From: Bacteroidales bacterium
GTDB lineage: Bacteria > Bacteroidota > Bacteroidia > Bacteroidales > P3
Reading direction: 5' to 3'
Assembly (NCBI GenBank): GCA_017449525.1
Contig: JAFTFL010000011.1
Location: forward strand, 47,511-111,510
Length of the DNA: 64,000 nt
Below, one piece after another: positions 10,336 to 63,974 of this stretch (position 1 is the stretch's first letter; every line of letters begins with the position of its first letter). The notes under the pieces were generated by a model. The model worked only from the letters and a program-made list of their open reading frames with translations. It had not been told where the DNA came from and made no database searches. Position numbers and translations under genes: made by a program.

Positions 10336-10599
10336 AGCGTGCGGTGCAGAGGCCAGTTTCGCACGGCTGCAGCTTTTGTTTCGCACGATTTCTGTTTCTG
10401 TGTCGTGCGACTTCTGCTTTTATGTCGTACGACACCGGCTTCCGTGCCGTACGACTTTTGTTTCTGTGCTGTACGGCTAATTGCCGTTGTGGTGTGGTGA
10501 AAATGAACGGGTAGACTACGACGGGATGCTTATGCCGTACGCCATGGAGCCCAATGCCCAACGACATTGGCTGCTGTGCTGTGAAGTATGGAATGGTGA
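10336..10599. repeat. 22-bp-period tandem array A (core GTCGTACGAC)
   Basis: Ten-base cores start at 10336, 10358, 10380, 10402, 10424, 10446 and 10468, each exactly 22 bp apart, then in the same register at 10534, 10556 and 10578. The positions at 10490 and 10512 are degenerate. Cores include GTCGTGCGAC, GTCGTACGAC, GCCGTACGAC, GCTGTACGGC and GCCGTACGCC. Most are perfect or near-perfect palindromes separated by 12-bp T-rich spacers. The array fills the space between two minus-strand promoter-like sequences and overlaps no credible gene. Confidence 0.85.
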
Positions 10600-10665
10600 A
10601 ACAGTGGTGGAGGGAATGGGCTAAGCAGGGGCAAAACGTCTTGCCATCAGAGGCGAATGCGATTG

Positions 10666-10690
10666 CAAAGGTACGCTTTTTTCGGCAATC
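10666..10690 (-). promoter_or_regulatory. Promoter-like element facing array A
   Basis: On the minus strand TACCTTTG (10673-10666) matches the -7 box and would start transcription leftwards through array A. The flanking sequence ATTGCCGAAAAA is almost identical to that next to the promoter-like element of array C at 42320. No good TTG at the standard distance is seen, so activity is uncertain. Confidence 0.45.
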
Positions 10691-10850
10691 GGCGCACAGA
10701 AAAAAGATGCAGAATGGCGCAAGAGCGGTGCCGACCTTGCGCGTGTAACAGTTTGGAGTTCTTGCACTGAGCAGTGGAAAGGGTTGCACTCGCGGCGCGT
10801 CGGTTGCGCTTGGCCGTGGAGGGGTGCTGTGCTAAAAAGAGATAAATGTG

Positions 10851-10881
10851 TTGCAGTGATGGGGAGGAATGTGTATATTTG
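10851..10881 (+). promoter_or_regulatory. Promoter of the metal-uptake gene set
   Basis: TTG (10851-10853), 20 bp, then TATATTTG (10874-10881), a good TAnnTTTG match. It ends 25 bp before the ATG at 10907. Confidence 0.6.
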
Positions 10882-10906
10882 CACCGTGGCAAGGATTGCG
10901 ACCATA

Positions 10907-11266
10907 ATGCAAAAAGTGCTGACAATCTGTGTGGCTGTACTGCTGCTTGGTGTCAGCGGTGGCATCGGGACGATGCGTTGCGCCTGCTCGGGACGGGTGA
11001 GCCTGCTGCTGCCCTCCGACTTGGCAGGCGACGACTGCTGCCGGCGCGATGCGCCCTGCATGGCGGTTGAGGTGCAGCAGCTCGACGACTTCTGCGCTTC
11101 GCCTACGGTGGCAATCGACGGGGCTGTAGACCTGCCTACGGCATGGTTGCAACCGATGCAACCTGCTGATAACATGGTTCTCATGTGCCATTGCCCCATG
11201 GCATCCCTTGCCAGTCTGTCTCCGCCTGGAGGGCGGTTGAGTTGGATTTCGGTGTGGAGGGTATGA
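10907..11266 (+). CDS. Small exported Cys-rich protein upstream of TonB receptor (HYC_CC_PP-like)
   Basis: This encodes 119 residues. The ATG at 10907 was chosen over the in-frame one at 10784 because it starts a signal-peptide-like segment (MQKVLTICVAVLLLGVSGG) and lies just downstream of the promoter at 10851-10881. The mature part has Cys at about 25, 27, 44, 45, 51, 63, 94 and 96, including a CC pair and CHC, and a PP near 106. The layout resembles the small Bacteroidetes HYC_CC_PP family, often found before a TonB receptor and an HMA protein, which is what follows here, although HYC itself is replaced by RCAC. I infer a periplasmic metal-binding role. The family assignment is tentative. 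Confidence 0.55.
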   Translation: MQKVLTICVAVLLLGVSGGIGTMRCACSGRVSLLLPSDLAGDDCCRRDAPCMAVEVQQLDDFCASPTVAIDGAVDLPTAWLQPMQPADNMVLMCHCPMASLASLSPPGGRLSWISVWRV

Positions 11267-11404
11267 ATGTGGCGTAGCCTACCCATTCATGATGCGCAAG
11301 TGTCATGGAATGAGGTGTTGTGCGCAGAAAGTGGGCGCTTCGTGCAGCCGCTGTAGTGCGCACCGTGCAATCGTCATATCAAACCACTACACAATTTATA
11401 TTTT

Positions 11405-13420: not shown

Positions 13421-13475
13421 TTTGTTTAACAACCCATCCATTGATCATCAACCACCATTAAACATCACATCAATC

Positions 13476-13844: not shown

Positions 13845-13891
13845 GTAGACTTCAATGATGGCAACGGGGTCGCTGCCTTGTGGTGGCGACC

Positions 13892-15988: not shown

Positions 15989-15998
15989 AATCGGCTTG

Positions 15999-16006
15999 CA
16001 AAGATA
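15999..16006 (-). promoter_or_regulatory. ribD: -7 box upstream of ribD
   Basis: TATCTTTG on the minus strand matches TAnnTTTG and ends 10 bp before the ribD start, implying a very short leader. A TTG lies 22 bp upstream, slightly more than the usual spacing. Confidence 0.5.
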
Positions 16007-16070
16007 CGACTATTATGCCACACGAGGACAATTCCCGCCATGCAACCGCTGATATATCACTTTTTTATCG

Positions 16071-16078: not shown

Positions 16079-16100
16079 CGCCCCTTATTTCGCATGACGA

Positions 16101-19100
16101 ATGATGTGTAAGAGAACTTCTTTCAATATGAAACATCACATTATCCCCTCTCGAAAATATACTAACAGACGATATGCAGTGAACACTCACGATACGGCGT
16201 GCGGCACAGGAAGTTGCCAGCAGCGTCGCAGTTTGAACGCAGTCAGTGCGTTGGTGGGCATGCTGGTGTTGCTCGCTCAGTTTGCGCTGCCTGCTGACGG
16301 TATGGCTCAACGCGTCTTGACTGGACGCCACATTCTGGTCGGCGCAGGTGAGCAGGTCGTGGTACTTCCCTTTCAGAACGAAACACTGCCCTGCAACAAT
16401 CCGCAGTTCCTCATAGTTACCGCACCCCGACATGGCACAGCCCTCGCTTGTGAGGCAGGACATAATGAGGGCATAGATGTTGATCTTGGTGGAGAGTTGG
16501 ATGACCCTGGTACGTTCAACCCGCGCCTGCATACGGATGAGGACAGAGACAATTCCACTCCGACACTATCTTCCTTCTGCTTCTCCTATACGGCAGGGAC
16601 GACAGGTGGAGGTCTTGGTGGAGAGTTGGACGATGAGTTTGGCGGCTCTCCGCAGCCTTACATAGGCTGTGACAGCCTGTGCGTGGCCATCGTCTGCGGG
16701 GTAGTAGACACCCTCTTCCGCTGGGTGCGCATCACTGTGGCGCAGCTTCCCGACAATGTGCTGGACGTGAACTGCGGCATTCAACCTACGGCTACACGAT
16801 GGGCAACCACCATTGGGTGGCAGTCAGCACCAGTAGTGAGTGCCCAGAACATACCACTGGTGGGCGACTTGGACGGCGACGGAGTGCCCGAAATCGTGTG
16901 CTGGTATGTGGATGCAGAACAGTCCGGGCCCTACTACGTCAACAGGCTGATAGTGTTCGACGGACGCACGAAGGTTCAGAAGGCCGACATCACGCTGCCT
17001 TCCAACGTGTCGGCATGGGATGCCGCCGCTTACGGATTGGTGAAGCTGCCCAACGGCAAGGGACTGATTGTGGCAGCCTGTGTGGACTTCAAGCTACGGG
17101 CATACGACATTACCTCCAGCACCCCAGCCACTCCTTATTGGACATCAGACATCAACTACGGTTCGACCTACGGCGATTGGGCGGTGAACATTGGCTTTGC
17201 AGACTTCGACCAGGACGGCCATCCCGAACTGTATGTGCGCAACAAGGTGTACAGTGCCGAAACGGGCAAACTGCTTGTGGAGATAACCCCAGTGGGCAAC
17301 CTGGGGGCGGCCTATGCACACTGGACCCATCCCACCAATGTGATGTGGAAGTTGTCGTCGCCCATCGTGGCCGACGTGGTCGGGGACTCGCGCCCCGAGT
17401 TGATATTGGGTAACCAGGCCTACGCTGTGAATCTCACCAATACAAACGGTACGGCTGGTAATGGTGCCACGTTGGCAGCCTCTGTCGTTCCGCCAGTGGG
17501 AGTGCCTCAAGATGGTCATGCCCAGGTGGCCGACTTCAACGGCGACGGCTATCTGGATGTATTCATCAGCAACCGTAGCACCCACGCCCTCACTGGAACG
17601 GTGTATGGATATGTGTGGGATGTGCACAACAATACGTTGAGTGAGCCCCTTGTGATAAGCACTGATTTCTCGGGCAAGAGCATCCCCCTTATTGCAGACA
17701 TCGACAATGACGGGAAGTTGGAGGTGCTGATACAATGCGGTGTGGCGGGCATGGCGGAGAAGTTCCGCGCCTACAGGTACAACCCCACGACGCGTACGTT
17801 CACTTACCTGTGGGGTATAGCCGTTGACGAGGACTCCTACTCCAACAGCATTACGGCTTTCGACTTCAATCAAGACGGTCTGCTGGAACTTGTCGTGAGC
17901 GACCAGAGCACGGTGCGTGTGATGAACGGCAGTGGGAAGAGCCACCTGACGGGTCGCGACACAGTGGCTATCTACTCCCTCAGTACACTGCCGCTACCGC
18001 AAACCACAGACATGCACTACCCCTTGGTGGTCGACGTGGATGCCGATGGCCATGCCGAGATTGTGTCGGTGTCGAACCACAAGTTGACCCTGCTCAGGTC
18101 GGCCGAATGGGAATGGGCACCTGCACGCAAGGTGTGGAACCAGTACATGTACAACGTTACCAACGTAAATGAGAACCTCACCATACCGCAGTATCTGTTT
18201 GGGAACGCTGCGGTATTTACCGACTTTGAGGGTACGGAGAGTCGGCCGTTCAACAACTTCCTGCAGCAGGCTACCACGCTGGATCGTTATGGTCGCCCCT
18301 TCACCTTGGCGGCCGACGTGGCGGTTGACACGGTGGTTTACACCGTGGATAACGGGGTTCACTCCTTCAGCATAGGTTATTCTAACCACGGCGATGCTGC
18401 TATGGCTGCCCCGTGGTACATCGCCACCATTGCCCACGGCATACAAGCAGATACCCTGCTACGTATGGACACCATCACGACCGCACTTGCTGTAGGTTCT
18501 GTGGGTCAGACCACCATCACGCTCCCCATAGCAGCACTCTGCGCCGCCGATAGCATTACGTTCATCCTCAACGGAACCGGTGCGACTATTGCCCAAAACG
18601 CAGGGCTGCAAGCCGAGTGCGACACGACGAACAACACCTACACCATCTCATTGCGTGAAGTTGCCCCTACCACTGGCGACACTACAGCCACCGCTTGCAA
18701 TGCCTTCACCTGGTACGGTACAGAGTACGCGATAACGGATGACTACACGCGCACCCTTACCAATGCAGCGGGCTGCGACAGCACCGCCACCCTACACCTT
18801 ACTATTAATAGGAGTACGGAGAGCGACACAGTAGCTACTGTTTGCAATGCCTTCACCTGGTACGGCAATGAGTATGTCCAGAGTGGGGACTATACGAGGT
18901 CTCTCACCAACGCCGTGGGCTGCGACAGTACGGTAATCCTTCGTCTCACCATCAACAGAAGTACAGTGGGTGACACTACGGCCGTCGCATGCGACAACTT
19001 CAACTGGTATGGCACCGAATATGCGCAGAGTGGCGACTACATGCGCACTTTAGCCAATGCAGTGGGCTGCGATAGTACGGTAACGTTGCACTTGACGGTT

Positions 19101-22100
19101 AGCGAGTGTCAAGTAGATACATGTGACAACTTGCTACTTGCCGCTGGTAATGTTACAAGCCAATACCTACCGTTCTCGGGTGGTAACGCAAGTCAAGCTC
19201 AATACTCACAATCAATCTACCCCGAGCCAATGCTTGTGGAACTTGTAGGGCATACGATTGATTCGTTGCACTACTTTGTATCCACCCAGGGAGGCCTTAC
19301 TCCTGTTAGTGGTGGAGAATGGATAATAAGCTTGGGCATTACGTTGCGGTCGAGTCTTATGATCGAGTTCGACAATACTACACCCCTCACAGAAGTGTAC
19401 AGGGGTTCAATCGTTCCTGATGCTAATGGCAACATTGTACTCCCACTCACCCAGCCCTTTGATTATGCTCATGGCAACCTGCTTGTCCAGATTCGACATA
19501 GTGCATCGTCCAGTGGAACAACATATAGTTTCTATGGTAAAGATGGAGAGAGTGGAAGTAGTCGATACATGCTTGGCAACGCCAACACGGTCTCAGGATT
19601 TCTGCCGAAACTAAGGATACATGGCTGTGCCAACCCCGATATTGATACAATCCGTCGTATTACAGGAGTAGCATTACCCTACTGCGAGAACTTTGATAGT
19701 TACCCATCAGGTGAGGGAAATATGCCCAGATTATGGACGGGACATAACACGCTTCGCATTGACGAAGGGCGGTATCCATTGGTATCGAGAGATTACAATG
19801 CTTCTGCCCCGAACTCATTTTGCCTACATGTGATGGATAATAACATCTGTTATGCCATCATGCCTGACTTCGCTATTCAATCGCTGCAAGAACTCAATAT
19901 ATCATTTCTGCTGAGAGCGCATCGCACTGAGCCAGGGGTATTGATTATTGGTGCGTTGCCCGATACAAATGATATGTCTTCCTTTGAACCGCTTGACACA
20001 ATCTACACTCCCAATGATTGGACAGCAGTGAATTATTCTTTTGCTCACTACCGAGGTACAGCACGTCGTGCCGCCTTTGTAGACGTGCGCCGACCAGGCT
20101 ATACCTTCGGCAATGTGTATATTGACAATTTTGTTGCTGACACATGGTTGCGTCCAACGCTGCAACTCATGGGTGACAGTGCTGTAGTGGCCACCCTCGA
20201 TTCGCCGTCGCCCGATTACTATGTCGAATATGGTAGTCATGGATTCACTCCAGGTGTAGGGCCCTCGACTCTGCTACATATCACCGAAAGTCCACACACC
20301 ATACGACTGCCACGAGAGGTTGAATTATACGACTTCTACGCCTACCCTGCAATAGAAGATAATACAGAAGTGCGAGGCACGTGCAACAATCCGTTGACAG
20401 TAGTAGTAGCTACGGTTACTCGACATCGTGATACGACGGTGTGTTCGAACAACTTTCCTTTTGTGTGGCATGGGCACATGCTAATGCATGACACAACGTT
20501 CAGTGATACTATTCGTGTTACGAATGCAGCAGACACTATAGTGCATTACAGTCTGCAGTCTGTGCCGACCTCACTTGGCGACACCACAGTTGCAGCATGC
20601 AATAGTTTCAACTGGTACGGTACCGAATATGCACGGAGTGGTGATTATACGCGCACGCTGGCTAATGCTTTGGGCTGCGACAGTACGGTAATGCTGCATC
20701 TCACGGTCAATCGTAGCAGTACGGTCGACACTTCGGCGGTCGCATGTAACAGTTTCAGCTGGTACGGCAGCGAGTATGTGCAGAGCGGCGACTACGTGCG
20801 TACCATCACCAACACCTCGGGGTGCGATAGCACAATAACACTGCACCTCACCGTGAACCGCGGTGGGTCGGACGACACTACAGCCACCGTCTGCAACAGC
20901 TTCACCTGGTATGGCTCTGAGTATGCGCAGAGCGGCGATTACACGAGAACCTTGACTAATGCAGTGGGCTGCGACAGCACCACCACCCTACACCTTACTG
21001 TAAATAGCAGCACTGCTGGCGATACAACGGCCGTGGCATGCGACGCTTTCAGTTGGTACGGCAACGAGTATGCGCAGAGCGGCGACTACACGCGCACCCT
21101 TGCCAATGCTGTCGGTTGCGATAGTACGGTAACCCTTCGCCTCACCATCAATCGCACCACTGCTGCTGATACAACAGCCGCGGTGTGTAGTACCTTCTCC
21201 TGGTATGGTGTAGAGTATACCCAAGGCGGCGACTACATGCGTACCCTTACCAATGCAGTGGGCTGCGACAGCACCGCCACACTGCACCTTGTTATTAATA
21301 GCAGCACTGGCGATACAACGGCTGTGGTATGCGACCCCTTCAGTTGGTACGGCAATGAGTATGCGCAGAGCGGCGACTATGTGCGTATACAGGTAAACAC
21401 CTTGGGTTGCGACAGCACGGTAACGCTGCACCTCACTGTCAACCAACCCACTTCGGCCACTGTCTGCGACACCATAGTTGAGAATGCCCTGCCGTGGACC
21501 TACCATGGATACCGCATCTACGGCGACACCTCGCGTGCCACCCTACGCATTACTAATGTGGCAGGCTGCGACAGTGTGGTAACCTACAGTTTGCATGTGC
21601 TGCGCAACGTGTCGCGCAGCATAGACAGTGTTGTTTGCGACAATATGCTGCCCCTCACGTGGAACGATAGCGTGTTCACCTCGGCGGGGAGTAAGAGGGT
21701 TACACTGCATGCACAGTCGGGTGCTGACAGTCTCTTGACGATGCGACTGGTCGTTCATCCTACTTACACAACGCGCGACACTGCTGCCCTGTGCCGAAGC
21801 GCACTGCCCTATGCATGGCGCGACACCACGCTGAGTACTACTATACAGTCGGGCGACTACATGCGCCGCTACAAGTCTCTGCAGCATTGCGACAGTGTGC
21901 TCCACTTGAATCTCACGGTTCACGAACCTGCCCTGCAGCGCGATACCGCTACTATTTGTACTGGGGCGTTGCCCTATACATGGCGTGACACAGTGCTACA
22001 GGTCGGAACGACCAGCGGCGACTATGTGCTGCACCGCCGTAGCCTTGCGGGTTGCGACAGCACTGGCACGCTTCACTTGACGGTTCGTGCCACCTACGAT

Positions 22101-23486
22101 GTGGAGGACAATACTATTGCGATCTGCGAGGATGGTTTTCCACGCCAGTGGCGTGACACCACGTTCCTGCCCGGCACAGTCAGTGGACAGTACACGCTGC
22201 ATCGCCGTTCTGCCAACGGCTGCGACAGTGTGATACGGGTGCAGTTGCAGGTGAATCCCGTGCATCAAACCGTGGATAGTCAAAACCATTGCGATGCCTA
22301 CACCTGGATAGACGGTGTAACCTACACCGCTTCTACCGCCATCCCCGTACGCACCTATCGCAGCGCCCTCGGTTGCGACAGCACAGTGCGCCTCGACTTG
22401 ACGGTGCGCCATTCCACTGATGCAGTCGACACGCAGGTGAGTTGCGCCCCCATTCGCTGGATTGATGGCAATATCTACTCGAACTCTACCACCCTGCCTC
22501 GCTCCACGCTCACCAACGTCGCAGGCTGCGACAGCACGGTGGCACTCCATCTCACCATGTATGCTCCAGTCTATACAGCCCTGACAGATAGTCTGTGTGA
22601 GGGTGGCCAGTACCTTTTCAATGGCAGGACGTTGACGCAGGGAGGACAGTATGTCGACACCTTGTCGACCACCCACCAGTGTGACAGTGTGGTACGGCTT
22701 ACGCTCACGCAGTTGGAGAAGCCTACGCTGCGTGTAGAGGCTCTGCGCATCTGCGAAGAGGCACTGTTCCACGTGCACCTTGAAACCAATGTGAACTACG
22801 TGGACTGGAGCATCGAAGGACGCGATTGGAACCGCGACTGGGGTTCGCAGCATGGCCGCGACTTCTACTTCAACCCCAAGGAGACTACAACCCTCAACGT
22901 GATGGTGGACTACTCGGATGTGCCGACCTGTCCAGCAACGGGCTCGGTAACGCTCCATCACATGTACTTGCCCGAAGCATCAATGACCGTTACGCCTGAG
23001 TTCCTAACGCTCGACGACCTCACGCTGACGGCCTTCGACCACAGTCGACACAGCACTTGGCGCGACTGGTATGTCAATGGCGAACTTGTGGAAGGTGGAC
23101 AACGATTGGTCTACACTGCGTCGCGCGATGCAGACTCGGTGGAGGTGATGATGGTCGCCTTCAATGACTACTGCACTGATACAGCCTACCGCATCATCCC
23201 CATCCGCAAGGCCACTCTTTTTGCGCCCAATGCCTTCACCCCAGGAGAGAACACCAACCGTGAGTTCCTCATCAAGATGGATGGCATCACGAGCTATGAG
23301 CTCTACATCTACAATCGCAAGGGCTTACTCGTTTACCACACCACCGACCCCAATACGGGATGGGACGGCACCTACCAGGGAAGAGACTGTCCGCAAGAAA
23401 GCTATGTATGGCTTGTGGTGTACAGCACCGAGGTGATGCCCAATGTGCCGCAGAAGCAGAAGGGTACAGTTATCCTGCTGCGGTAG
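16101..23486 (+). CDS. Giant T9SS-secreted adhesin-like protein, type B sorting signal
   Basis: This encodes 2461 residues. An unusually long basic leader of about 45 residues precedes a signal peptide ending in GMAQ; the ATG at 16128 is a possible alternative start. Six FG-GAP/VCBS-like calcium loops lie between about 250 and 660 (GDLDGDGVPE, ADFDQDGHPE, ADFNGDGYLD, ADIDNDGKLE, FDFNQDGLLE, VDVDADGHAE). Three ~46-residue repeats follow (about 855-1003), each with CNAFTWYGTEY-like and GCDSTVTLHLTVN-like ends. A cleaved-adhesin or choice-of-anchor region (about 1190-1350) comes next. The repeat then resumes: six close copies and several diverged ones to about 2150. The last ~90 residues (LFAPNAFTPGENTNREFLIK, ending KGTVILLR) are the gliding-motility-type T9SS type B C-terminal domain. 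I infer a surface adhesin or structural fibre. Confidence 0.88.
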   Translation: MMCKRTSFNMKHHIIPSRKYTNRRYAVNTHDTACGTGSCQQRRSLNAVSALVGMLVLLAQFALPADGMAQRVLTGRHILVGAGEQVVVLPFQNETLPCNNPQFLIVTAPRHGTALACEAGHNEGIDVDLGGELDDPGTFNPRLHTDEDRDNSTPTLSSFCFSYTAGTTGGGLGGELDDEFGGSPQPYIGCDSLCVAIVCGVVDTLFRWVRITVAQLPDNVLDVNCGIQPTATRWATTIGWQSAPVVSAQNIPLVGDLDGDGVPEIVCWYVDAEQSGPYYVNRLIVFDGRTKVQKADITLPSNVSAWDAAAYGLVKLPNGKGLIVAACVDFKLRAYDITSSTPATPYWTSDINYGSTYGDWAVNIGFADFDQDGHPELYVRNKVYSAETGKLLVEITPVGNLGAAYAHWTHPTNVMWKLSSPIVADVVGDSRPELILGNQAYAVNLTNTNGTAGNGATLAASVVPPVGVPQDGHAQVADFNGDGYLDVFISNRSTHALTGTVYGYVWDVHNNTLSEPLVISTDFSGKSIPLIADIDNDGKLEVLIQCGVAGMAEKFRAYRYNPTTRTFTYLWGIAVDEDSYSNSITAFDFNQDGLLELVVSDQSTVRVMNGSGKSHLTGRDTVAIYSLSTLPLPQTTDMHYPLVVDVDADGHAEIVSVSNHKLTLLRSAEWEWAPARKVWNQYMYNVTNVNENLTIPQYLFGNAAVFTDFEGTESRPFNNFLQQATTLDRYGRPFTLAADVAVDTVVYTVDNGVHSFSIGYSNHGDAAMAAPWYIATIAHGIQADTLLRMDTITTALAVGSVGQTTITLPIAALCAADSITFILNGTGATIAQNAGLQAECDTTNNTYTISLREVAPTTGDTTATACNAFTWYGTEYAITDDYTRTLTNAAGCDSTATLHLTINRSTESDTVATVCNAFTWYGNEYVQSGDYTRSLTNAVGCDSTVILRLTINRSTVGDTTAVACDNFNWYGTEYAQSGDYMRTLANAVGCDSTVTLHLTVSECQVDTCDNLLLAAGNVTSQYLPFSGGNASQAQYSQSIYPEPMLVELVGHTIDSLHYFVSTQGGLTPVSGGEWIISLGITLRSSLMIEFDNTTPLTEVYRGSIVPDANGNIVLPLTQPFDYAHGNLLVQIRHSASSSGTTYSFYGKDGESGSSRYMLGNANTVSGFLPKLRIHGCANPDIDTIRRITGVALPYCENFDSYPSGEGNMPRLWTGHNTLRIDEGRYPLVSRDYNASAPNSFCLHVMDNNICYAIMPDFAIQSLQELNISFLLRAHRTEPGVLIIGALPDTNDMSSFEPLDTIYTPNDWTAVNYSFAHYRGTARRAAFVDVRRPGYTFGNVYIDNFVADTWLRPTLQLMGDSAVVATLDSPSPDYYVEYGSHGFTPGVGPSTLLHITESPHTIRLPREVELYDFYAYPAIEDNTEVRGTCNNPLTVVVATVTRHRDTTVCSNNFPFVWHGHMLMHDTTFSDTIRVTNAADTIVHYSLQSVPTSLGDTTVAACNSFNWYGTEYARSGDYTRTLANALGCDSTVMLHLTVNRSSTVDTSAVACNSFSWYGSEYVQSGDYVRTITNTSGCDSTITLHLTVNRGGSDDTTATVCNSFTWYGSEYAQSGDYTRTLTNAVGCDSTTTLHLTVNSSTAGDTTAVACDAFSWYGNEYAQSGDYTRTLANAVGCDSTVTLRLTINRTTAADTTAAVCSTFSWYGVEYTQGGDYMRTLTNAVGCDSTATLHLVINSSTGDTTAVVCDPFSWYGNEYAQSGDYVRIQVNTLGCDSTVTLHLTVNQPTSATVCDTIVENALPWTYHGYRIYGDTSRATLRITNVAGCDSVVTYSLHVLRNVSRSIDSVVCDNMLPLTWNDSVFTSAGSKRVTLHAQSGADSLLTMRLVVHPTYTTRDTAALCRSALPYAWRDTTLSTTIQSGDYMRRYKSLQHCDSVLHLNLTVHEPALQRDTATICTGALPYTWRDTVLQVGTTSGDYVLHRRSLAGCDSTGTLHLTVRATYDVEDNTIAICEDGFPRQWRDTTFLPGTVSGQYTLHRRSANGCDSVIRVQLQVNPVHQTVDSQNHCDAYTWIDGVTYTASTAIPVRTYRSALGCDSTVRLDLTVRHSTDAVDTQVSCAPIRWIDGNIYSNSTTLPRSTLTNVAGCDSTVALHLTMYAPVYTALTDSLCEGGQYLFNGRTLTQGGQYVDTLSTTHQCDSVVRLTLTQLEKPTLRVEALRICEEALFHVHLETNVNYVDWSIEGRDWNRDWGSQHGRDFYFNPKETTTLNVMVDYSDVPTCPATGSVTLHHMYLPEASMTVTPEFLTLDDLTLTAFDHSRHSTWRDWYVNGELVEGGQRLVYTASRDADSVEVMMVAFNDYCTDTAYRIIPIRKATLFAPNAFTPGENTNREFLIKMDGITSYELYIYNRKGLLVYHTTDPNTGWDGTYQGRDCPQESYVWLVVYSTEVMPNVPQKQKGTVILLR

Positions 23487-23653: not shown

Positions 23654-23795
23654 CTCTTTGCATAGGGGTGTAGAGTAGTGGGTTGATGAGTGGAGGTTGA
23701 CAGGCCGAACGACAGGAGTCCAACCAGCCTAAAAATAGGAGAGCGGCAGGTCGAGAGGTGGTGGGGAGTGGCTGCAGGGCGAGGTGTGGCGAGAC

Positions 23796-27622: not shown

Positions 27623-27697
27623 GGTGGGCGTAGTTCAGCTGGTTAGAGCGCCAGATTGTGGATCTGGAGGTCGTGGGTTCGAGCCCCACCTCCCACC
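27623..27697 (+). tRNA. tRNA-His (GTG)
   Basis: A complete cloverleaf can be drawn: acceptor from G27624, D arm GTTCAGCTGGTTAGAGC, anticodon loop with GTG in ATTGTGGAT, and T arm GTGGGTTCGAGCCCCAC. The extra G at position -1 (27623) faces C73 (27697), the identity element of tRNA-His. CCA is not encoded. Confidence 0.93.
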
Positions 27698-27936: not shown

Positions 27937-27967
27937 TTGTGTCTTTGACCTGTTTTGCGTACTTTTG
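27937..27967 (+). promoter_or_regulatory. Promoter-like sequence upstream of array B
   Basis: TTG (27937-27939), 20 bp, TACTTTTG (27960-27967). No gene starts downstream until 28600, so any transcript would first run through repeat array B. Between 27733 and 27936 I see nothing else supportable. Confidence 0.6.
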
Positions 27968-28067
27968 CATCCGTTTTGGCAGCGCGCCGCTTGGGGGTGT
28001 GGTGCTTGCGGAATCGAATTTTTTTCCATCAATTTTTCGTTCGCTGTCTTGGACTGTAGTGGCTACT

Positions 28068-28265
28068 GCTGTACGGCATGGCTGCTATTGTCGTACGACT
28101 TTGTGTAGATAAGTGTGCGATAGTGCAGTGCTTCACGTTGTTGTGCGGACTATGTGCCGTACGGCGGAGATGGGAGGGCCGAACGCCATGGGCGATTCTG
28201 TCGTACGGCATCGGGGCATCGGTCCAACAGGAGGTGTCGCGCGTCGCAACGGGGTGTGTGCAAAC
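28068..28265. repeat. 22-bp-period tandem array B (core GYCGTACGGC)
   Basis: Ten-base cores start at 28068 (GCTGTACGGC), 28090 (GTCGTACGAC), 28112 (AGTGTGCGAT), 28156 (GCCGTACGGC), 28178 (GCCGAACGCC) and 28200 (GTCGTACGGC), all multiples of 22 bp apart. Degenerate units lie in register at 28134, 28222 and 28244. The cores match those of arrays A and C. A small hairpin GCGGTC/GACCGC (28289-28306) lies downstream; the remainder up to 28500 holds no recognisable gene. Confidence 0.85.
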
Positions 28266-41978: not shown

Positions 41979-42019
41979 GGCAGCCGTCGGTGTGCTGCCG
42001 TTCTCCTTTTTCTTTTGGT
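41979..42019 (+). terminator. Probable terminator after tilS
   Basis: GGCAGC (41979-41984) and GCTGCC (41994-41999) form a 6-bp stem with a 9-nt loop, followed by the T-rich run TTCTCCTTTTTCTTTT. Confidence 0.6.
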
Positions 42020-42020
42020 T

Positions 42021-42218
42021 CCCTACGGTTGGTGGGGTGTGTGCCGTACGGGGCAGGCTGCTTTGCTGTAGGGCAGAGCGGTCGGTGCCGTACGGCTTGG
42101 GGGCTGTACAAGTAGGTGTGCTATATGCAGATGCTGCTGTGCATGGGCGGGTGCCGTACAGGGCAAGAACCTATGCCGTGCGGCACGTGCCTCCCTGTCC
42201 TGTGGGGCGGGGCTTATG
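42021..42218. repeat. 22-bp-period tandem array C (core GCCGTACGG)
   Basis: Cores start at 42021 (CCCTACGGTT), 42043 (GCCGTACGGG), 42065 (GCTGTAGGGC), 42087 (GCCGTACGGC), 42153 (GCCGTACAGG) and 42175 (GCCGTGCGGC), all multiples of 22 bp apart. Units at 42109 and 42131 are degenerate but keep the register; an extra GCTGTAC lies off-register at 42103. The array sits between the tilS terminator and a leftward promoter-like element at 42320. Confidence 0.82.
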
Positions 42219-42319
42219 GGGGTGAGGAAGAGGAGCAACGGGATTCGTCGGCTGTGGGGCGAGCCATCTGCGGTGCAGACACTCTCGGCGAAGCTTCGAT
42301 AGCCCCACGGCGCGGTTTG

Positions 42320-42350
42320 CAAAGGTACAACTTTTTCGGCAATGGAGCAA
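42320..42350 (-). promoter_or_regulatory. Promoter-like element facing array C
   Basis: Minus strand TTG (42350-42348), 20 bp, TACCTTTG (42327-42320). No minus-strand gene lies downstream; transcription would run through array C towards the 3' end of tilS. The sequence ATTGCCGAAAAA upstream of the -7 box is shared with the element at 10666. Confidence 0.6.
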
Positions 42351-49538: not shown

Positions 49539-49609
49539 TGTCCAATGGTGTAATGGTAGCACATCTGACTCTGGATCAGCCAGTCTAGGTTCGAGTCCTG
49601 GTTGGACAA
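49539..49609 (+). tRNA. tRNA-Gln (CTG)
   Basis: The acceptor TGTCCAA pairs with TTGGACA, with A as discriminator. The D arm is GTGTAATGGTAGCAC, the anticodon loop CTCTGGA carries CTG, and the T arm includes GGTTCGAGTCC. The U1-A72 start is typical for tRNA-Gln. CCA is not encoded. Confidence 0.9.
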
Positions 49610-49611: not shown

Positions 49612-49646
49612 AAAGAAGAGGAACTGCAAAGCAGTTCCTCTTCTTT
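49612..49646 (+). terminator. Rho-independent terminator after tRNA-Gln
   Basis: GAAGAGGAACTGC (49615-49627) pairs perfectly with GCAGTTCCTCTTC (49631-49643) around AAA, then TTTG. Confidence 0.88.
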
Positions 49647-49654
49647 GTGATTGC

Positions 49655-49786
49655 ACCTGAGCAGGAGTTGTGATTTACTTGCGCAGAGTCTATTTTTTGC
49701 ATGTGCAGTGATTAAGCTTTGCATGTGCAAAGATAGTGATTTGTTTGTGCATTGTTTTCGTTTCTCCTGCACAGAGGTGCGGTTGG
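49655..49786. repeat. 22-bp-period tandem array E (core GCATGTGCA)
   Basis: Six units start at 49655, 49677, 49699, 49721, 49743 and 49765, each exactly 22 bp apart. Cores are ACCTGAGCA, ACTTGCGCA, GCATGTGCA (twice), GTTTGTGCA and TCCTGCACA. With flanks, TTGCATGTGCAA is an interrupted palindrome. The array fills all the space between the tRNA-Gln terminator and the stop codon of the FN3 gene at 49787. Confidence 0.85.
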
Positions 49787-50863
49787 CTAATACCATGTGC
49801 CAGTGCTGCGGTTGTAGATTTTGGAGGTGGAACCGCTGCCTTGGGCATTTTCGCCAATGATGCCTACGTAGAGGTAGCCTTGAGATGTGAAGTAGTTAGA
49901 ACAAGTGAAACTATAGCTGGTGGCGGTGCCAGAGAGGGTGGCTACATCGGTCCAATTACCATCGGACACTTTGGCTCGAACGCGGACGGAAGTGGGACGT
50001 CCGCAGCCAGATGACGACGGGAAAGTCCACGAAAGTCGACAGGTGGAGCCGCTGATGCTGGCCGTGACGGTGGGATTACACGGTGAATAGGCCACTGTGT
50101 AATTGTAGGACACGTAGGAGGAGAAACCACTTTCGCCAGCACTATTGACTGCTTTCACTTTGTAGTAGTTGTTGCCGTTGGCAGGCATAGGCACTCCGGC
50201 AGAGGTGGTGGTTACGGTGTTGACTTTGCTGTAACCGCTTGAAGAGGAGGTGGAATGGTAGATGTCGTACGAGGTGGCTCCAGTGGAGGCGTTCCATGAA
50301 AGGCGCAGGTCGGGCAGATTATTGTTGCCATAGTTCTGGATTTGTAGACCTGTGGGTGCTGATGGTTTCTGTACGGAAGAGGCGATGTTGACAGAGGTGT
50401 AGCTACTCTGTGAGCCTTCGCCGTTGCTGTTGTATGCGCTCACGCGGTAGTAGTTGGTGCCTGTCATGGGGCTTTCGTCGTAGGCAAAGGTGTTTGATGT
50501 GGAGGTCAGCCGCTGGTAACCACTCGATGAGGAGCTACTGCGGTAGACGTAGTAGCCAGTGGCATTGGTGGAACTGTTCCAGCGAATTTGTACGCGCGGA
50601 GCGCTTGATGTACCGACATTACTGCAGTTCAGTCCCGTTGGGGCAGAAGGGGTGCTATAGTCGGGCGTGGTGCCACCACCGCCACCTGTACCGCTGCCAG
50701 ATCCTCCACCGCTTCCGCCCTGTGTGTAAGGATCGTAGAAGTGTTCGTCTTCATCGTCGTTACAGCCCCACAGGAGAGCGAGGCTGCCGACGCTTATCAA
50801 GGCAAAGGTGAGTACTGCGAATCGCATGTGGTGGTGCTTGTTGTGATGTGTTTTTGTTCTCAT
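49787..50863 (-). CDS. Fibronectin type III repeat lipoprotein
   Basis: This encodes 358 residues. An N-terminal hydrophobic segment ends in LALLWGC, with Cys 34 a probable lipidation site; an ATG 12 codons in could also be the start. An acidic then Gly/Ser/Thr-rich linker (about 36-65) leads to two clear fibronectin type III domains (starting SAPTGLNCSN and SAPTGLQIQN, each with a GTNYYRV or GNNYYKV strand). A third, less regular domain (CRLSWTFPSS, VRVRAKVSDG) follows. It is probably anchored in the outer membrane and binds a protein or glycan. Ser runs (SSSSSSGY) recur in the same loop of both domains. No TAnnTTTG promoter is obvious upstream. Confidence 0.8.
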   Translation of the reverse strand: MRTKTHHNKHHHMRFAVLTFALISVGSLALLWGCNDDEDEHFYDPYTQGGSGGGSGSGTGGGGGTTPDYSTPSAPTGLNCSNVGTSSAPRVQIRWNSSTNATGYYVYRSSSSSSGYQRLTSTSNTFAYDESPMTGTNYYRVSAYNSNGEGSQSSYTSVNIASSVQKPSAPTGLQIQNYGNNNLPDLRLSWNASTGATSYDIYHSTSSSSGYSKVNTVTTTSAGVPMPANGNNYYKVKAVNSAGESGFSSYVSYNYTVAYSPCNPTVTASISGSTCRLSWTFPSSSGCGRPTSVRVRAKVSDGNWTDVATLSGTATSYSFTCSNYFTSQGYLYVGIIGENAQGSGSTSKIYNRSTGTWY

Positions 50864-54092: not shown

Positions 54093-54290
54093 CGTTTTTA
54101 ATTCTATGTACGGGTACTGTGGGTGGATTCTTTTTCGGGGTCGAGCGGTGTGGGCGCGTGTGGGGTATGCTTTGGGGTGGAGAGAGGGGTGGTTTACTAT
54201 GGGGGTGGGAGCGCCCGTGGGGCTTTGTGTGGGTGCTTGGGGCATGTGAGGGGTCTCCCTTACCGATGGTGAGGAGGGGTTGCTTCAAGG

Positions 54291-54467
54291 CTGATGTGTG
54301 CTTTCATTAGTTCTGATGTGCTTTTGCATCAGTTGTTCAATATGTGTATCAAGATAATGAGTATGCGTAGTGAGAATATTGAGAACGTGCTGTCAACATG
54401 CAGAGTATGTGTTCTCAAAATACTGAGAATGCCTTCTCAATTTCTGATGTACGTTTACATCAGGATT
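54291..54467. repeat. 22-bp-period tandem array F (hairpin-like units)
   Basis: Eight units begin at about 54292, 54314, 54336, 54358, 54380, 54402, 54424 and 54445. Most can fold on themselves: CTGATG..CATCAG, TTGA..TCAA, TGAGAA..TTCTCA and CTGATGTA..TACATCAG. The two arms change together between units (GAGAA with TTCTC, GATGT with ACATC). The array lies between the icd terminator and the Nfn promoter. Confidence 0.85.
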
Positions 54468-54575
54468 GAGGGATGCTTTCCTTAGGGGTGGGCTTTCCTC
54501 TGGGCTTGAAAATAAATTTCGCGGGTCGGAGATGCGGATCGGGCGAGGACGTGGAGGGTGGTAAGGAAAACGAAT

Positions 54576-54642: not shown

Positions 54643-55851
54643 TTAGGCGAGACGTTTCTCGAGGCGTTGGCGGATAGCGGCTATGAAGTCGGCGCTGTTA
54701 ACGGCCTTGGGGGTAATGCCTTCCATGAGGTTCACGAGGTCCTTGGTGGCGATGCCCTCACCGAGGGTGTCGAAGCAGGCGCCTTCGAGCTGGTCGGCAA
54801 AGTTCATGAGTTCTTTGATGCCGTCTTTTTCGCCACGCTTGCGCAGGGCTCCACTCCATGCAAAGATGGTTGCCATGGGGTTGGTGGAGGTCTCCTCGCC
54901 AGCGAGGTGCTTGTAGTAGTGGCGGGTTACGGTGCCGTGGGCGGCCTCGTACTCATAGTTGCCGTCGGGGCTGACGAGTACGCTCGTCATCATGGCCAGT
55001 GACCCAAAGGCGGTCGATATCATGTCGCTCATCACGTCGCCGTCGTAGTTTTTGCAGGCCCAAATGAAGCCTCCCTTGCTTCTGATGACACGGGCTACGG
55101 CGTCGTCGATCAGCGTGTAGAAGTAGGTGATACCGAGGCGCTCAAATTCGGCCTTATAGTCCTGGAACACTTCTTCGAAGATGGCCTTGAACTGACCGTC
55201 GTATTTCTTTGAGATGGTGTCCTTGGTGGAGAACCAGAGGTCTTGCTTCGAGTCGATGGCAAATTTGAAACAGCTATGGGCGAACGAACGGATGGACTTG
55301 TCGAGGTTATGCATGCCCTGCAGCACGCCAGCACCTTTGAAGTTGTGGATCACCACCTCGTCATGCTTGCCGCTTTCACCATCGAAGACCAAGCGTGCTG
55401 TGCCAGCCTCTTCGACGCGCAGTTCCACACCCTTGTACACGTCGCCATAAGCGTGGCGCGCAATGGTGATGGGCTGTTCCCAGTTCTTAACCACCGGCTT
55501 GATGGTAGGGATAACGATGGGGGTGCGGAACACGGTGCCGTCCAGTATCGAACGTATCGTGCCGTTGGGGCTCTTCCACATTTCGTGCAGCTTGTATTCG
55601 CTCATACGCTGCACGTTAGGCGTAATAGTGGCGCACTTTACGCCCACGCCGTACTTCTTGCATGCTTCGGCAGCCTCGACAGTAATCTTATCGCCCGTCT
55701 CGTCGCGCTTCACCAGCCCCAGGTCGTAATACTCCGTCTTGAGGTCTACGAACGGAAGCAGTAGCTCGTCCTTAATCATCTTCCACAGGATGCGAGTCAT
55801 CTCGTCGCCGTCCATTTCCACCAATGGGGTGGTCATCTTTATCTTTTCCAT
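54643..55851 (-). CDS. icd: NADP-type isocitrate dehydrogenase
   Basis: This encodes 402 residues from the ATG at 55851, where homology begins (MEKIKMTTPLVEMDGDEMTR). It is the dimeric, eukaryote-like type II form: VEMDGDEMTRILW, CATITPNVQRM, WKSPNGTIRSILDGTVFR, the metal-binding region WACKNYDGDVMSDM and EAAHGTVTRHYYKH. It oxidises isocitrate to 2-oxoglutarate and CO2; NADP+ preference is inferred from the subfamily. It lies 227 bp downstream of the aconitase-family gene on the same strand, but the gap contains repeat array G and a strong hairpin, so expression may be partly separated. Confidence 0.93.
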   Translation of the reverse strand: MEKIKMTTPLVEMDGDEMTRILWKMIKDELLLPFVDLKTEYYDLGLVKRDETGDKITVEAAEACKKYGVGVKCATITPNVQRMSEYKLHEMWKSPNGTIRSILDGTVFRTPIVIPTIKPVVKNWEQPITIARHAYGDVYKGVELRVEEAGTARLVFDGESGKHDEVVIHNFKGAGVLQGMHNLDKSIRSFAHSCFKFAIDSKQDLWFSTKDTISKKYDGQFKAIFEEVFQDYKAEFERLGITYFYTLIDDAVARVIRSKGGFIWACKNYDGDVMSDMISTAFGSLAMMTSVLVSPDGNYEYEAAHGTVTRHYYKHLAGEETSTNPMATIFAWSGALRKRGEKDGIKELMNFADQLEGACFDTLGEGIATKDLVNLMEGITPKAVNSADFIAAIRQRLEKRLA

Positions 55852-55852
55852 G

Positions 55853-56028
55853 TTGTATGATGTGTTGTGTTGAAATGTGTGATATATTCTTTTCAAACGT
55901 GTTATGTGCTCTAATTAGACGTGTGATGTATCGATTCCCGACTGGTGACGTACCGTTTCCCAACACGTAACGTGTGGTTTACCAGTGTGTGAACTTCTGT
56001 TTTCCAACGTCTTTTCTGCACTTTTTAT
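55853..56028. repeat. 22-bp-period tandem array G in the icd leader
   Basis: Eight units start at 55853, 55875, 55897, 55919, 55941, 55963, 55985 and 56007, each exactly 22 bp apart. The consensus is near ACGTGTGATGT followed by a TTTCCCA-like end. The array starts 1 bp upstream of the icd ATG and ends at the hairpin at 56029, so it fills the 5' leader. The cores differ from arrays A-C. Confidence 0.85.
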
Positions 56029-58313: not shown

Positions 58314-58324
58314 AACATTGTTAA

Positions 58325-60785: not shown

Positions 60786-60803
60786 CGGTCAGCAAACGCA
60801 GAG

Positions 60804-60887
60804 AAACTTCGGCCACCACTTGCTGCGCTCCGCGGGGATGTGTTGCATCTGCCTACAGGGAGCTGCAGCAAGTGGTATACGAAGTTT
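60804..60887 (-). other. Long intra-operon hairpin between citF and citX
   Basis: AAACTTCG (60804-60811) and CCACTTGCTGC (60816-60826) pair perfectly with CGAAGTTT (60880-60887) and GCAGCAAGTGG (60865-60875), leaving a symmetric 4x4 internal loop and a 38-nt apical region that can pair further (CTCC/GGAG). It fills most of the 112-bp gap. Confidence 0.75.
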
Positions 60888-60897
60888 GTGAAGTGTT

Positions 60898-62448: not shown

Positions 62449-62451
62449 AAT

Positions 62452-63339
62452 TTATATGTCTTCTTCTTTTAATATCCCGGAGGCTATAGCCAAGTCAATC
62501 GTGCGCTGTGCACGCAATACCACAGGCCTGTCTACCATTTTTCCGTTGACTGCGATTACGCCGCTGCCTCGTTTTTCAGCATCTTTGATGGCGGCTATGA
62601 TGGTTTGAGCCTTCTCGATGTCTTTCTGCTTGGGTGCGAACACTTCGTTGACCACCTCAATCTGACGAGGATTGATGATGGACTTGCCGTCGAATCCAAG
62701 GGTCTTAATGAGTTCAACCTCCTTGCGGAAGGTTTCCATGTCGTTCAAGTTGGAGTATACCGTGTCAAGGGCGTCAATACCGGCAGCGCGAGCGGCCACG
62801 ACGATGGTTTCGCGAGCCAGCAGCAGTTCGGCTCCGTCGGGAGTGCGTTGCGTCTTCAGGTTGGCGCAGTAGTCTTCAGCACCGAGGGCAATACCCATCA
62901 TGCGTTTTGAAGCTATGGCAATGTCGTAGGCATTGACTATGCCCAGTGCGCTCTCAATGGCTGCCATGATCTTCGTGCGGCCCAAACATCCAATCTCGCG
63001 CTCCACGCGCTCTATCTCGGCCTCCACCTCGCGCACCTCATCGGCGGTCTCGGTCTTGGGCATGCGGATGACGTGCACCCCAGCCTTTACTACAGCCTCC
63101 ACATCTTTCTTGCCGTAAGGAGTGTTCAGCGGGTTGATGCGAACCACCATCTCGGTCTGGCCGTAGTCTATAGTCTTCAGTGCATTGTGCACCAACAAGC
63201 GAGCTGCATCCTTCTCTGCCATGGTTACCGAATCCTCGAGGTCCAGCATGATAGAATCAGCACCGTATATGAAAGCATCTTGCATCATCGCCGGGTTGTT
63301 GCCCGGGACGAACATCATTGTTCTTCTTAGTCTTTGCAT
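62452..63339 (-). CDS. citE: Citrate lyase beta subunit
   Basis: This encodes 295 residues from the ATG at 63339, where homology starts (MQRLRRTMMFVPGNNPAMMQ). It has the HpcH/HpaI aldolase-type barrel with SIMLDLEDSV, IRMPKTETADEV, MAAIESALGIVNAYDIA and GKSIINPRQIEVVNEVFAP. CitE is the citryl-ACP lyase and splits citryl-CitD to oxaloacetate and acetyl-CitD, using Mg2+. It starts 22 bp after citD. Confidence 0.95.
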   Translation of the reverse strand: MQRLRRTMMFVPGNNPAMMQDAFIYGADSIMLDLEDSVTMAEKDAARLLVHNALKTIDYGQTEMVVRINPLNTPYGKKDVEAVVKAGVHVIRMPKTETADEVREVEAEIERVEREIGCLGRTKIMAAIESALGIVNAYDIAIASKRMMGIALGAEDYCANLKTQRTPDGAELLLARETIVVAARAAGIDALDTVYSNLNDMETFRKEVELIKTLGFDGKSIINPRQIEVVNEVFAPKQKDIEKAQTIIAAIKDAEKRGSGVIAVNGKMVDRPVVLRAQRTIDLAIASGILKEEDI

Positions 63340-63361
63340 AGTGATTTTGGAATTTTGATGG

Positions 63362-63646
63362 TTAGTCCTTCCACACATCCTTGCCTGTGGCACGTACGGC
63401 AGCAGCCGTAACTCGTGCACGAATTGTGCAGTCGAGAGCGCCCTTGTCAATCACCTTGACATCAGCCGTTGTTACACCCATCTCCGTTAAGGTCTCGGAT
63501 ACAACCTTCTTGATTTGTTCACCGAACTGGTAGGCCACCGTGCTGTTGAGGTCAATGTGCAGCCCAGCCTCAGTCGAAGGACTAATCTGCACCATGATGT
63601 CGCCCGACTCGAGCGTGCCTGCCGATGATGTTGTTAGTTGGTTCAT
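63362..63646 (-). CDS. citD: Citrate lyase acyl carrier protein (gamma subunit)
   Basis: This encodes 94 residues of standard length. The cofactor-bearing Ser lies in the N-terminal motif SSAGTLESGD, and DCTIRARVTAAAVRA is near the end. CitD carries the phosphoribosyl-dephospho-CoA arm between CitF and CitE. It is the first gene of the operon citD-citE-citF-citX-citCG-acn. I see no TAnnTTTG promoter in the 170 bp upstream. Confidence 0.93.
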   Translation of the reverse strand: MNQLTTSSAGTLESGDIMVQISPSTEAGLHIDLNSTVAYQFGEQIKKVVSETLTEMGVTTADVKVIDKGALDCTIRARVTAAAVRATGKDVWKD

Positions 63647-63819
63647 TGTTTATATATGTTTTTATTCTTCGCCTGCGCCCTACATGTCGGACTGACAGAC
63701 CTTATACCTTGTACAAAACGCCCTCAAAACGGCTTCGCCCTTTTTATATTATGTGTACTTGCAAATAATTTTTTGCGTGCTCCTCAAGAGTAACTTCTCC
63801 AGCGGAAAACGGGTACATT

Positions 63820-63974
63820 CCGTAGGCCGTCCATCCAACCCCCGTGGGCTGCACACCTAACATTTTGTAGGTTGTTTTTCCAACACCCGAAGGCTGTATG
63901 TTCATATTCAGTTGGGCATGCTGTGCAGTGCAGTAGGGCAGAAAGTACTTTCCTGTACGGCGAGTAAAGGAGAG
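63820..63974. repeat. 22-bp-period tandem array H upstream of the cit operon
   Basis: Cores start at 63820 (CCGTAGGCC), 63842 (CCGTGGGCT), 63865 (TTGTAGGTT, one-base shift), 63887 (CCGAAGGCT), 63909 (CAGTTGGGC), 63931 (CAGTAGGGC) and 63953 (CTGTACGGC). The last core matches those of arrays A-C. The array lies 174 bp upstream of citD. The sequence between it and citD holds no gene I can support. Confidence 0.78.

What the first reader, a model, noticed from the sequence alone, without database searches (positions are those of the whole stretch)
10336..63974. A family of intergenic arrays sharing an exact 22-bp period but not a sequence
Seven intergenic regions (10336, 28068, 42021, 49655, 54291, 55853, 63820) each hold 6-12 degenerate units. 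The unit start is kept at multiples of 22 bp even where the core is nearly lost, with only one-base slips in arrays F and H. Consensus sequences differ between arrays, so the conserved property is the period and usually dyad symmetry, not the sequence. 22 bp is about two helical turns, which would place sites on one DNA face for a phased protein; alternatively each unit could form a small RNA hairpin. They are not CRISPR: there are no ~30-nt identical repeats or unique spacers. I do not recognise this as a described family, though I cannot rule it out.
Basis: partly seen in the sequence, partly recalled or inferred. Interest (0 to 1): 0.9.

Follow-up and report, generated by a model that had tools for sequence, protein, structure and literature searches.

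The report
Phase-locked palindrome arrays between bacterial genes
This gut-type bacterium carries dozens of copies of a DNA element that looks like a gene-control site and was not found described, a short mirror-image sequence repeated every 22 letters behind its own start signal, often between genes that point away from each other, and related species sampled lack it although some carry similar arrays of a different sequence.

Summary
All seven arrays exceed shuffled versions of their own regions (0-2 of 600 shuffles reach them). In 864 kb of this genome, lag-22 self-similarity hits 2271 windows in 40 of 215 long intergenic regions; 40 shuffles average 2.5 windows. It has an inward Bacteroidetes-type promoter (CG-TACCTTTG-CA), commonly 128 bp before slot 0, then the palindrome ATGCCGTACGGCAT on a rigid 22-bp lattice: typically two sites, a 66-bp central module, four sites. 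Steps are 22 or 23, never 21. Spacers are nearly unrelated and half-sites vary independently, so selection appears to act on DNA dyads, not RNA hairpins. About half of the long divergent regions hold one (24 of 45). The paired core occurs 80 times here, at most 3 times in each of 119 other genus genomes; some carry 11/22-bp arrays of other sequence. Best reading: binding lattices for an unidentified dimeric, oligomerising DNA-binding protein, geometrically like BvgA, acting as operator or insulator beside divergent promoters. Protein and function are inferred. The other four arrays are a heterogeneous second class.

The parts
10356..10673 (-). class I element W1 (promoter to last palindrome), oriented leftward
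10666..10673 (-). W1 -7 promoter box TACCTTTG pointing into the array
10554..10567 (-). W1 slot -1 palindrome ATGTCGTTGGGCAT
10532..10545 (-). W1 slot 0 palindrome ATGGCGTACGGCAT
10480..10531 (-). W1 central module (66 bp start to start between slots 0 and 3; slot 2 at 10488-10501 is TTCACCACACCACA)
10466..10479 (-). W1 slot 3 palindrome TAGCCGTACAGCAC
10444..10457 (-). W1 slot 4 palindrome
10422..10435 (-). W1 slot 5 palindrome GTGTCGTACGACAT
10356..10413 (-). W1 slot 6 and two further sites (10400-10413, 10378-10391, 10356-10369)
27960..28211 (+). class I element W2 (promoter to last palindrome)
27960..27967 (+). W2 -7 promoter box TACTTTTG
28066..28101 (+). W2 slots -1 and 0 (28066-28079 CTGCTGTACGGCAT, 28088-28101 TTGTCGTACGACTT)
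28132..28145 (+). W2 slot 2 of the central module, TTCACGTTGTTGTG
28154..28211 (+). W2 slots 3, 4, 5 (28154-28167, 28176-28189, 28198-28211)
41995..42327 (-). class I element W3 (promoter to last palindrome), oriented leftward, in a convergent region; promoter box further out than usual (-163)
42320..42327 (-). W3 -7 promoter box TACCTTTG
42151..42186 (-). W3 slots -1 (42173-42186) and 0 (42151-42164)
42107..42120 (-). W3 slot 2, CACACCTACTTGTA
42018..42098 (-). W3 slots 3-6 (42085-42098, 42063-42076, 42041-42054, 42018-42031)
49619..49809 (.). class II array, 22-bp period, core TTTGCATGTGCAAA in one unit, convergent region beside a tRNA
54225..54510 (.). class II array, 22-bp period; units include TGATGTACGTTTACATCA, a core also seen in two other loci of the genome
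55814..56077 (.). class II array, 22-bp period, upstream of the isocitrate dehydrogenase gene
63814..63980 (.). class II array, alternating 22/23-bp steps (lag 45)

Best explanation
The GTAC-type arrays are copies of one regulatory DNA element: a lattice of 14-bp palindromic sites (inverted heptamers ATGCCGT/ACGGCAT), each bound by one dimer of a sequence-specific DNA-binding protein, with neighbouring dimers touching on the same face of the helix every 22 bp (a +1 step is tolerated, a -1 step is not). Typically two dimers, a special central stretch and four dimers form one nucleoprotein complex downstream of a near-consensus promoter. Most likely it acts as operator and roadblock/insulator beside divergent promoters: it stops or controls transcription that starts at the inward promoter and separates the two neighbouring genes. 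Shown: architecture, spacing rule, DNA-level rather than RNA-level constraint, promoter motif, divergent-region preference, restriction to this species within the genus genomes held. Inferred: the protein, its oligomerisation, use of the promoter, and the insulating or operator function. Some sister species may meet a similar need with arrays of other sequence on an 11/22-bp lattice.
For: All 48 pairwise distances up to 400 bp between the 79 exact GYCGTACGRC sites in 864 kb are 22n, 22n+1 or 22n+2. Pairs of strong sites: 84 at 22 bp, 19 at 23, 0 at 21, 0-4 at the other spacings from 15 to 30. Typical order two sites, gap, four sites; 37 of 40 arrays with at least four sites contain the gap, and of 40 gaps 37 are exactly 66 bp and 3 are 67. 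Central positions conserved in 37 aligned copies (A 84%, T 81%, TCANCTTGTTGTG). Spacers almost unrelated inside an array (identity 0.372 vs 0.302 between arrays), so spacing is kept by selection rather than recent duplication. No compensatory pairing and little wobble preference. Inward TAnnTTTG in 31 of 36 copies, 19 of them at -131..-127. Divergent regions longer than 200 bp: 25 array calls, 24 distinct regions, of 45; others 19 of 114; Fisher p = 2.6e-6 on the uncorrected counts. Genes facing arrays are mixed housekeeping genes, not one pathway. BvgA~P binds as head-to-head dimers with centres 22 bp apart on one helix face, best site an inverted heptad (PMC7250471, abstract and passages).
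Against: No binding protein was identified; Lrp/AsnC, my first candidate, is absent. Nine of 35 copies (7 'anti', 2 'convergent') have no gene called for the inward promoter to drive, so a pure gene-operator role is incomplete. Three of 40 arrays lack the central gap and 5 of 36 copies lack an exact promoter box. G-U exceeds A-C slightly on the transcribed strand (63 vs 48 summed over three pairs). Core conservation is partly built in, since arrays were found with the core. In G062/G110 the mirrored 11-bp elements are not clearly divergent (7 of 20) and 23 of 24 promoter boxes near them point outward, so function may differ. No expression or binding data exist here.
Confidence: 0.5

Rival explanations
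1. Family of small non-coding RNA genes: the inward promoter makes an RNA of about 270 nt or more whose palindromes form hairpins bound by a protein.
For: 31 of 36 copies have a near-consensus promoter box pointing in, 19 at a nearly fixed distance; 9 of 35 have no called gene to drive; the sequences fold better than dinucleotide shuffles (mean z -2.7 over 36); G-U slightly above A-C.
Against: No compensatory changes, equal folding on both strands, a terminator-like hairpin plus T-run within 400 bp in only 2 of 36, leader not conserved, no Rfam match at the arrays of the window (other copies not searched). Exact 22-bp register has no obvious role in RNA.
Confidence: 0.15
2. Dispersed non-autonomous mobile element (MITE or Correia-like, with internal promoter) that spread in this lineage.
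For: About 90 copies here; the paired core is all but absent in the rest of the genus and the profile finds nothing convincing in 58 congeners; at glmM the region is 624 bp with the element against 203-438 bp without it in the 7 congeners with the same divergent neighbour; promoter travels with the array.
Against: Only lattice sites, centre and promoter are conserved; spacers and flanks are not, no terminal inverted repeats stand out, and insertion would not be expected to favour divergent regions with the neighbour pointing away in 29 of 35.
Confidence: 0.2
3. Topological device: palindromes absorb or mark the negative supercoiling that collects between divergent genes; sequence matters little, dyad symmetry and helical phase matter.
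For: Divergent preference; dyads and 21-22-bp periods recur with other sequences in other Bacteroidales.
Against: Within this genome one core sequence recurs at dozens of loci, which a structure-only role does not need.
Confidence: 0.1
4. Decayed minisatellites: 22-bp tandem duplications that are drifting, no function.
For: Several class II arrays are ordinary tandem repeats (e.g. L216 16637-16891); tandem repeats of 7, 8, 9 and 11 bp are common in the genus.
Against: For class I: typical length and order, shared cores with unrelated spacers, promoter at a near-fixed distance, no -1 slips.
Confidence: 0.05

Closest known systems
BvgA~P binding arrays (Bordetella; NarL/LuxR-type response regulator by recall), PMC7250471 (abstract and passages read)
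   Same: inverted-heptad best site, head-to-head dimers, centres 22 bp apart, same helix face, weak sites tolerated
   Different: a few promoters of one regulon, array ending at the -35; here about 90 loci beside mixed housekeeping genes, downstream of an inward promoter, with a central module; no such regulator shown here
BrickBuilt MITE of Porphyromonas gingivalis, PMC4596501 (abstract and passages read)
   Same: Bacteroidales, always intergenic, tandem short units, promoter activity; the paper notes 41-, 23- and 22-nt tandem repeats reported in strain W83 without locations
   Different: 23-nt repeat with flanking leader and tail that include small inverted ends, 19 copies; here 22-bp lattice, divergent spacers, no conserved ends
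REP elements, GTAG/CGTC families, PMC3733652 (start of abstract and passages read)
   Same: many intergenic palindromes per genome, families differ between species
   Different: REPs are 20-40-bp palindromes described as favouring unidirectional and convergent regions, with G-T pairing in stems; here phased arrays favouring divergent regions with little wobble preference
Correia elements of Neisseria (recalled; only the search listing seen)
   Same: dispersed intergenic units carrying promoters
   Different: conserved over their whole length with terminal inverted repeats (recalled)
Lrp/AsnC octamer arrays (recalled; search listing only)
   Same: dimers on phased palindromes, DNA wrapping
   Different: family absent from this genome and 40 congeners

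Membership tests
BrickBuilt MITE | 23-nt tandem unit | tested here: not met
   period 22 with some +1 steps: 84 pairs at 22, 19 at 23
BrickBuilt MITE | conserved leader and tail with inverted-repeat ends | tested here: not met
   outside the slots no column passes 0.45 bits in an ungapped alignment of 36 copies anchored on slot 0, apart from three columns of slot -2; the promoter appears when anchored on itself
REP (GTAG/CGTC) | stem-loop maintained by pairing, including G-T pairs | tested here: not met
   independent half-sites, slight G-U excess only
REP (GTAG/CGTC) | preference for unidirectional/convergent regions | tested here: not met
   24 distinct of 45 long divergent regions against 19 calls in 114 others
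REP (GTAG/CGTC) | GTAG or CGTC tag at one end of the palindrome | not tested
   no search for the tags was made
CRISPR | near-identical direct repeats of 24-48 bp with regular spacers | tested here: not met
   14-bp degenerate palindromes with 8-9-bp gaps
CRISPR | adjacent cas genes | not tested
   not searched for; flanking genes seen are housekeeping
BvgA-like dimer array | dimer centres 22 bp apart | tested here: met
   site spacing only; dimers themselves not shown
BvgA-like dimer array | 14-bp inverted heptad | tested here: met
   consensus ATGCCGT/ACGGCAT
BvgA-like dimer array | array abuts the -35 of the promoter it activates | tested here: not met
   array lies downstream of the inward promoter, -7 box commonly at about -128
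BvgA-like dimer array | bound by a NarL/LuxR-type response regulator | not tested
   no regulator searched for in this genome
Lrp/AsnC operator arrays | an Lrp/AsnC protein in the genome | tested here: not met
   PF01037 in 0 of 41 genomes; 11 of 14 control genomes ring
Known Rfam RNA | match over the gathering score | tested here: not met
   window only: two tRNAs, nothing at the arrays

The most novel reading that the evidence does not exclude
Bacteroidales intergenic regions, above all between divergent genes, carry a general class of phase-locked dyad lattices (11, 21 or 22 bp) whose geometry is conserved while the sequence is rewritten lineage by lineage together with a fast-evolving oligomeric DNA-binding protein: a chromosome-wide insulating or nucleoid-organising system of a kind not described before.
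Probability: 0.3. Interest if true: 0.93.

Novelty: new variant of a known kind. Interest (0 to 1): 0.82.

Why it matters
A stereotyped, promoter-linked element in about 90 copies per genome, beside housekeeping genes, in one species of a genus whose other held members lack its paired core but in part carry arrays of other sequence, points to a global DNA-binding system that changes its sequence code quickly while keeping its geometry. That would give a directly testable case of co-evolution of a global DNA-binding protein with its sites, and a possible answer to how compact bacterial chromosomes insulate divergent promoters.

Tried and rejected
Lrp/AsnC octamer as binder: rejected, family absent. 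RNA hairpins: disfavoured by pair counts on 100-101 unoriented and 182 oriented sites; the oriented count kept only sites with >=9 of 14 matches, which may hide some compensated pairs. Coding role: longest ATG frames average 59 aa forward, 63 aa reverse, 44 in shuffles. Intrinsic terminators: 2 of 36. Rho-type C-rich leader: C exceeds G in 25 of 36 leaders, not pursued. Profile matches in congeners: 2 weak ones in 58 genomes, both inside open reading frames, taken as chance; with more than 40 genomes that search uses stricter filters. One regulon: array-facing genes are mixed; 53 of the 60 facing genes were scanned, very long or truncated ones left out, and a comparison set without arrays was listed but not scanned. 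Second sub-family TGATGTAANNTTACATCA: three arrays. A first look at glmM neighbourhoods read the wrong side for loci on the minus strand and is replaced. A wider lag or dyad scan of the rest of the genome was not made. Counting limits: gene calls are from my own codon-usage script, not a standard gene finder, 6 of 56 arrays had no usable flank and were dropped, and the L097 and L199 arrays were each counted twice, so the Fisher test uses slightly inflated counts and was not recomputed; one of 37 aligned copies (L093 19517) was dropped as the second reading of an array already used; copy number is from 179 profile matches, 95 with E below 1e-7, two of which overlap on opposite strands.
Full report
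WHAT WAS CHECKED. The window is part of a 2.53 Mb genome of 26 contigs, taken as a Bacteroidetes from its type IX secretion and TonB proteins and its promoter motif; it is not named. All seven arrays are periodic at 22 bp (63820 at 22/23) beyond local shuffles. Lag 22 stands out over other lags in the window and in 864 kb of the genome: 2271 windows in 40 of 215 long intergenic regions against a shuffle mean of 2.5 windows.

ONE FAMILY, NOT SEVEN. Sixteen of the first 26 lag-22 arrays, judged by eye, share a core TGYCGTACGRCA. Exact GYCGTACGRC occurs 79 times in 864 kb, 8 of them in predicted genes; the 48 distances up to 400 bp are all 22n, 22n+1 or 22n+2. Of the 64 six-base palindromes, CGTACG has 69 intergenic pairs within 250 bp at exact multiples of 22 (43 at other distances, many of them 22n+1); the next palindrome has 6. 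A position matrix gives 84 strong-site pairs at 22 bp, 19 at 23 and none at 21.

ARCHITECTURE. Forty arrays with at least four sites have stereotyped spans: 19 are 154-156 bp and 10 are 132-134 bp. The typical order is two palindromes, a gap, four palindromes, with single slots often too degenerate to score. Thirty-seven of 40 arrays contain the gap, three do not (L203 19908, L090 2490, L094 12993); of 40 gaps 37 are exactly 66 bp and 3 are 67 bp. The gap is not empty: in 37 aligned copies position +32 is A in 84%, +39 is T in 81%, and the third lattice slot reads TCANCTTGTTGTG in register. Spacers are nearly unrelated even within an array (identity 0.372 vs 0.302 between arrays, p = 0.01). 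Shared sites plus near-saturated spacers plus fixed spacing is what selection on binding sites in register would leave, not fresh tandem duplication. The strength of the core is partly built in, because arrays were found by it.

DNA, NOT RNA. Complementarity of half-sites equals the independent expectation (59 vs 55.4 of 101; 75 vs 72.2 of 100; 41 vs 42.9 of 100; the next position outward is even lower, 23 vs 35.2). On oriented copies, Watson-Crick pairs are 117 vs 124.9, 125 vs 122.7 and 133 vs 133.4 expected of 182; G-U exceeds A-C only slightly (36/25, 20/18, 7/5). The same holds for the mirrored elements of G062/G110: arms pair no better within an element than between elements (23.7 vs 24.4 of 35 positions, 20 elements).

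PROMOTER. In 31 of 36 oriented copies an exact TAnnTTTG box points into the array between -170 and -90; 19 lie at -131..-127 from slot 0, 7 at -145..-154, about one lattice step upstream, and 5 elsewhere. The consensus is TTG...CG-TACCTTTG-CA, the Bacteroidetes -7/-33 type (recalled; TAnnTTTG occurs in papers listed, which I did not read). Around genes of this genome TAnnTTTG toward the gene peaks in the last 150 bp. Of 60 genes facing arrays, 39 have such a box between array and gene. There is no conserved reading frame and rarely an intrinsic terminator. Use of the inward promoter is not shown.

PLACE. Of 50 classified arrays (6 of 56 dropped), 25 lie in divergent, 15 in tandem, 4 in convergent regions and 6 weak ones (2-4 sites) in genes; one divergent and one tandem region are counted twice. 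Divergent regions longer than 200 bp number 45, others 114; p = 2.6e-6 on these counts. Relative to element orientation the upstream gene points away in 29 of 35. Genes facing arrays include dnaX, hisS, a glmM-type mutase, riboflavin synthase, an rseP-type protease and acetate kinase. Matches with E below 1e-7 lie on 21 of 26 contigs.

SPECIES-SPECIFIC. The paired core CGTACG-N15..17-CGTACG occurs 80 times here; of the other 119 genus genomes held, 8 have any, at most 3 (reversed control up to 4). In 197 other genomes of the order 25 have any; only G185 (67, at 21 bp, in another dispersed repeat) and G137 (9, at 21 bp) exceed 2. A sequence profile of slots 0-4 finds 179 matches here (E <= 0.01) and 2 chance matches in 58 congeners. 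At glmM the region is 624 bp here; in the 7 of 29 congener loci with the same divergent neighbour it is 203-438 bp and shows no such element. In 7 of the other 22 the best lag upstream of glmM is 11 (40-54 of 66), i.e. an array of other sequence.

SAME GEOMETRY ELSEWHERE, OTHER SEQUENCE. Of 25 congeners sampled, 13 have an intergenic lag-11 hit and 6 a lag-22 hit; lag 9 occurs in 11 and lags 8 and 14 in 7 each. Twelve of 25 lag-11 arrays are divergent (44 of 159 long regions are), whereas arrays of 7, 8 and 9 bp are mostly tandem (72 of 86). A mirrored element, about four 11-bp half-sites per side around CTCCTACC-NN-GGTAGGAG, is multi-copy in G009 (67), G062 (55), G022 (39), G110 (35), G301 (10), G002 and G052 (9 each), in 15 of 119 genomes, control 0. 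In 14 genomes across the order lags 21 and 22 each occur in 5, the most frequent together with lag 8. Named loci with lag-22 arrays: RUG11493, Candidatus Equimonas enterica, RUG176, Prevotella sp. AGR2160; lag 21 includes RGIG4461. Against a universal rule: three of the 14 order genomes show no lag at this depth, G002 and G021 in the genus are dominated by other lags, and the G062/G110 elements are not clearly divergent (7 of 20).

CLASS II. Twenty-three further lag-22 arrays in 864 kb, including the window's 49655, 54291 and 55853, are heterogeneous and lie in tandem (15) or convergent (5) regions, 1 divergent, 2 unplaced. Some are plain tandem repeats. I do not claim one function for them.

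MECHANISM. The best-fitting precedent is BvgA~P: head-to-head dimers, best on an inverted heptad, centres 22 bp apart on one face (PMC7250471, abstract and passages). The lattice here fits that geometry. Which protein binds, and whether the complex represses, insulates or organises the chromosome, is inference; I rate operator/roadblock beside divergent promoters most likely.

LITERATURE. Searches listed no paper that, from titles, abstract starts and the passages read, describes such elements. The nearest are BrickBuilt (PMC4596501, abstract and passages), which also notes that 22-nt tandem repeats were reported in P. gingivalis W83 without locations, and REP families (PMC3733652, passages). 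The library lacks most subscription papers, so 'undescribed' means not found in these searches.

Noticed in passing
window 54643-55896: Isocitrate dehydrogenase gene, up to 89% identical to proteins of rumen Bacteroidales assemblies, but no match in 24 congeners; of 40 relatives searched three distant ones have 49-55% matches and four more only weak ones. It looks acquired, yet is flanked by two class II arrays.
   Followed up: partly
window 23685-23795: A further intergenic array with period 23 in the convergent region between 23486 and 23796; lag 23 scores 43/88, lag 22 is not above shuffles (192 of 600).
   Followed up: no
window 18695-21436: 147-bp and 294-bp repeats inside the 2461-aa reading frame 16101-23486.
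   Followed up: no
window 27624-27697 and 49539-49609: Two tRNA genes, each in a region that also holds an array (28066 and 49655).
   Followed up: no
   Followed up: no
L219, L220, L225, L231 and other congener stretches: Abundant intergenic tandem repeats of 7, 8 or 9 bp, mostly in tandem-oriented regions, differing in sequence between species.
   Followed up: partly
L204 17886-18236: Array that looks like a 66-bp higher-order unit, i.e. three 22-bp subunits repeated.
   Followed up: no
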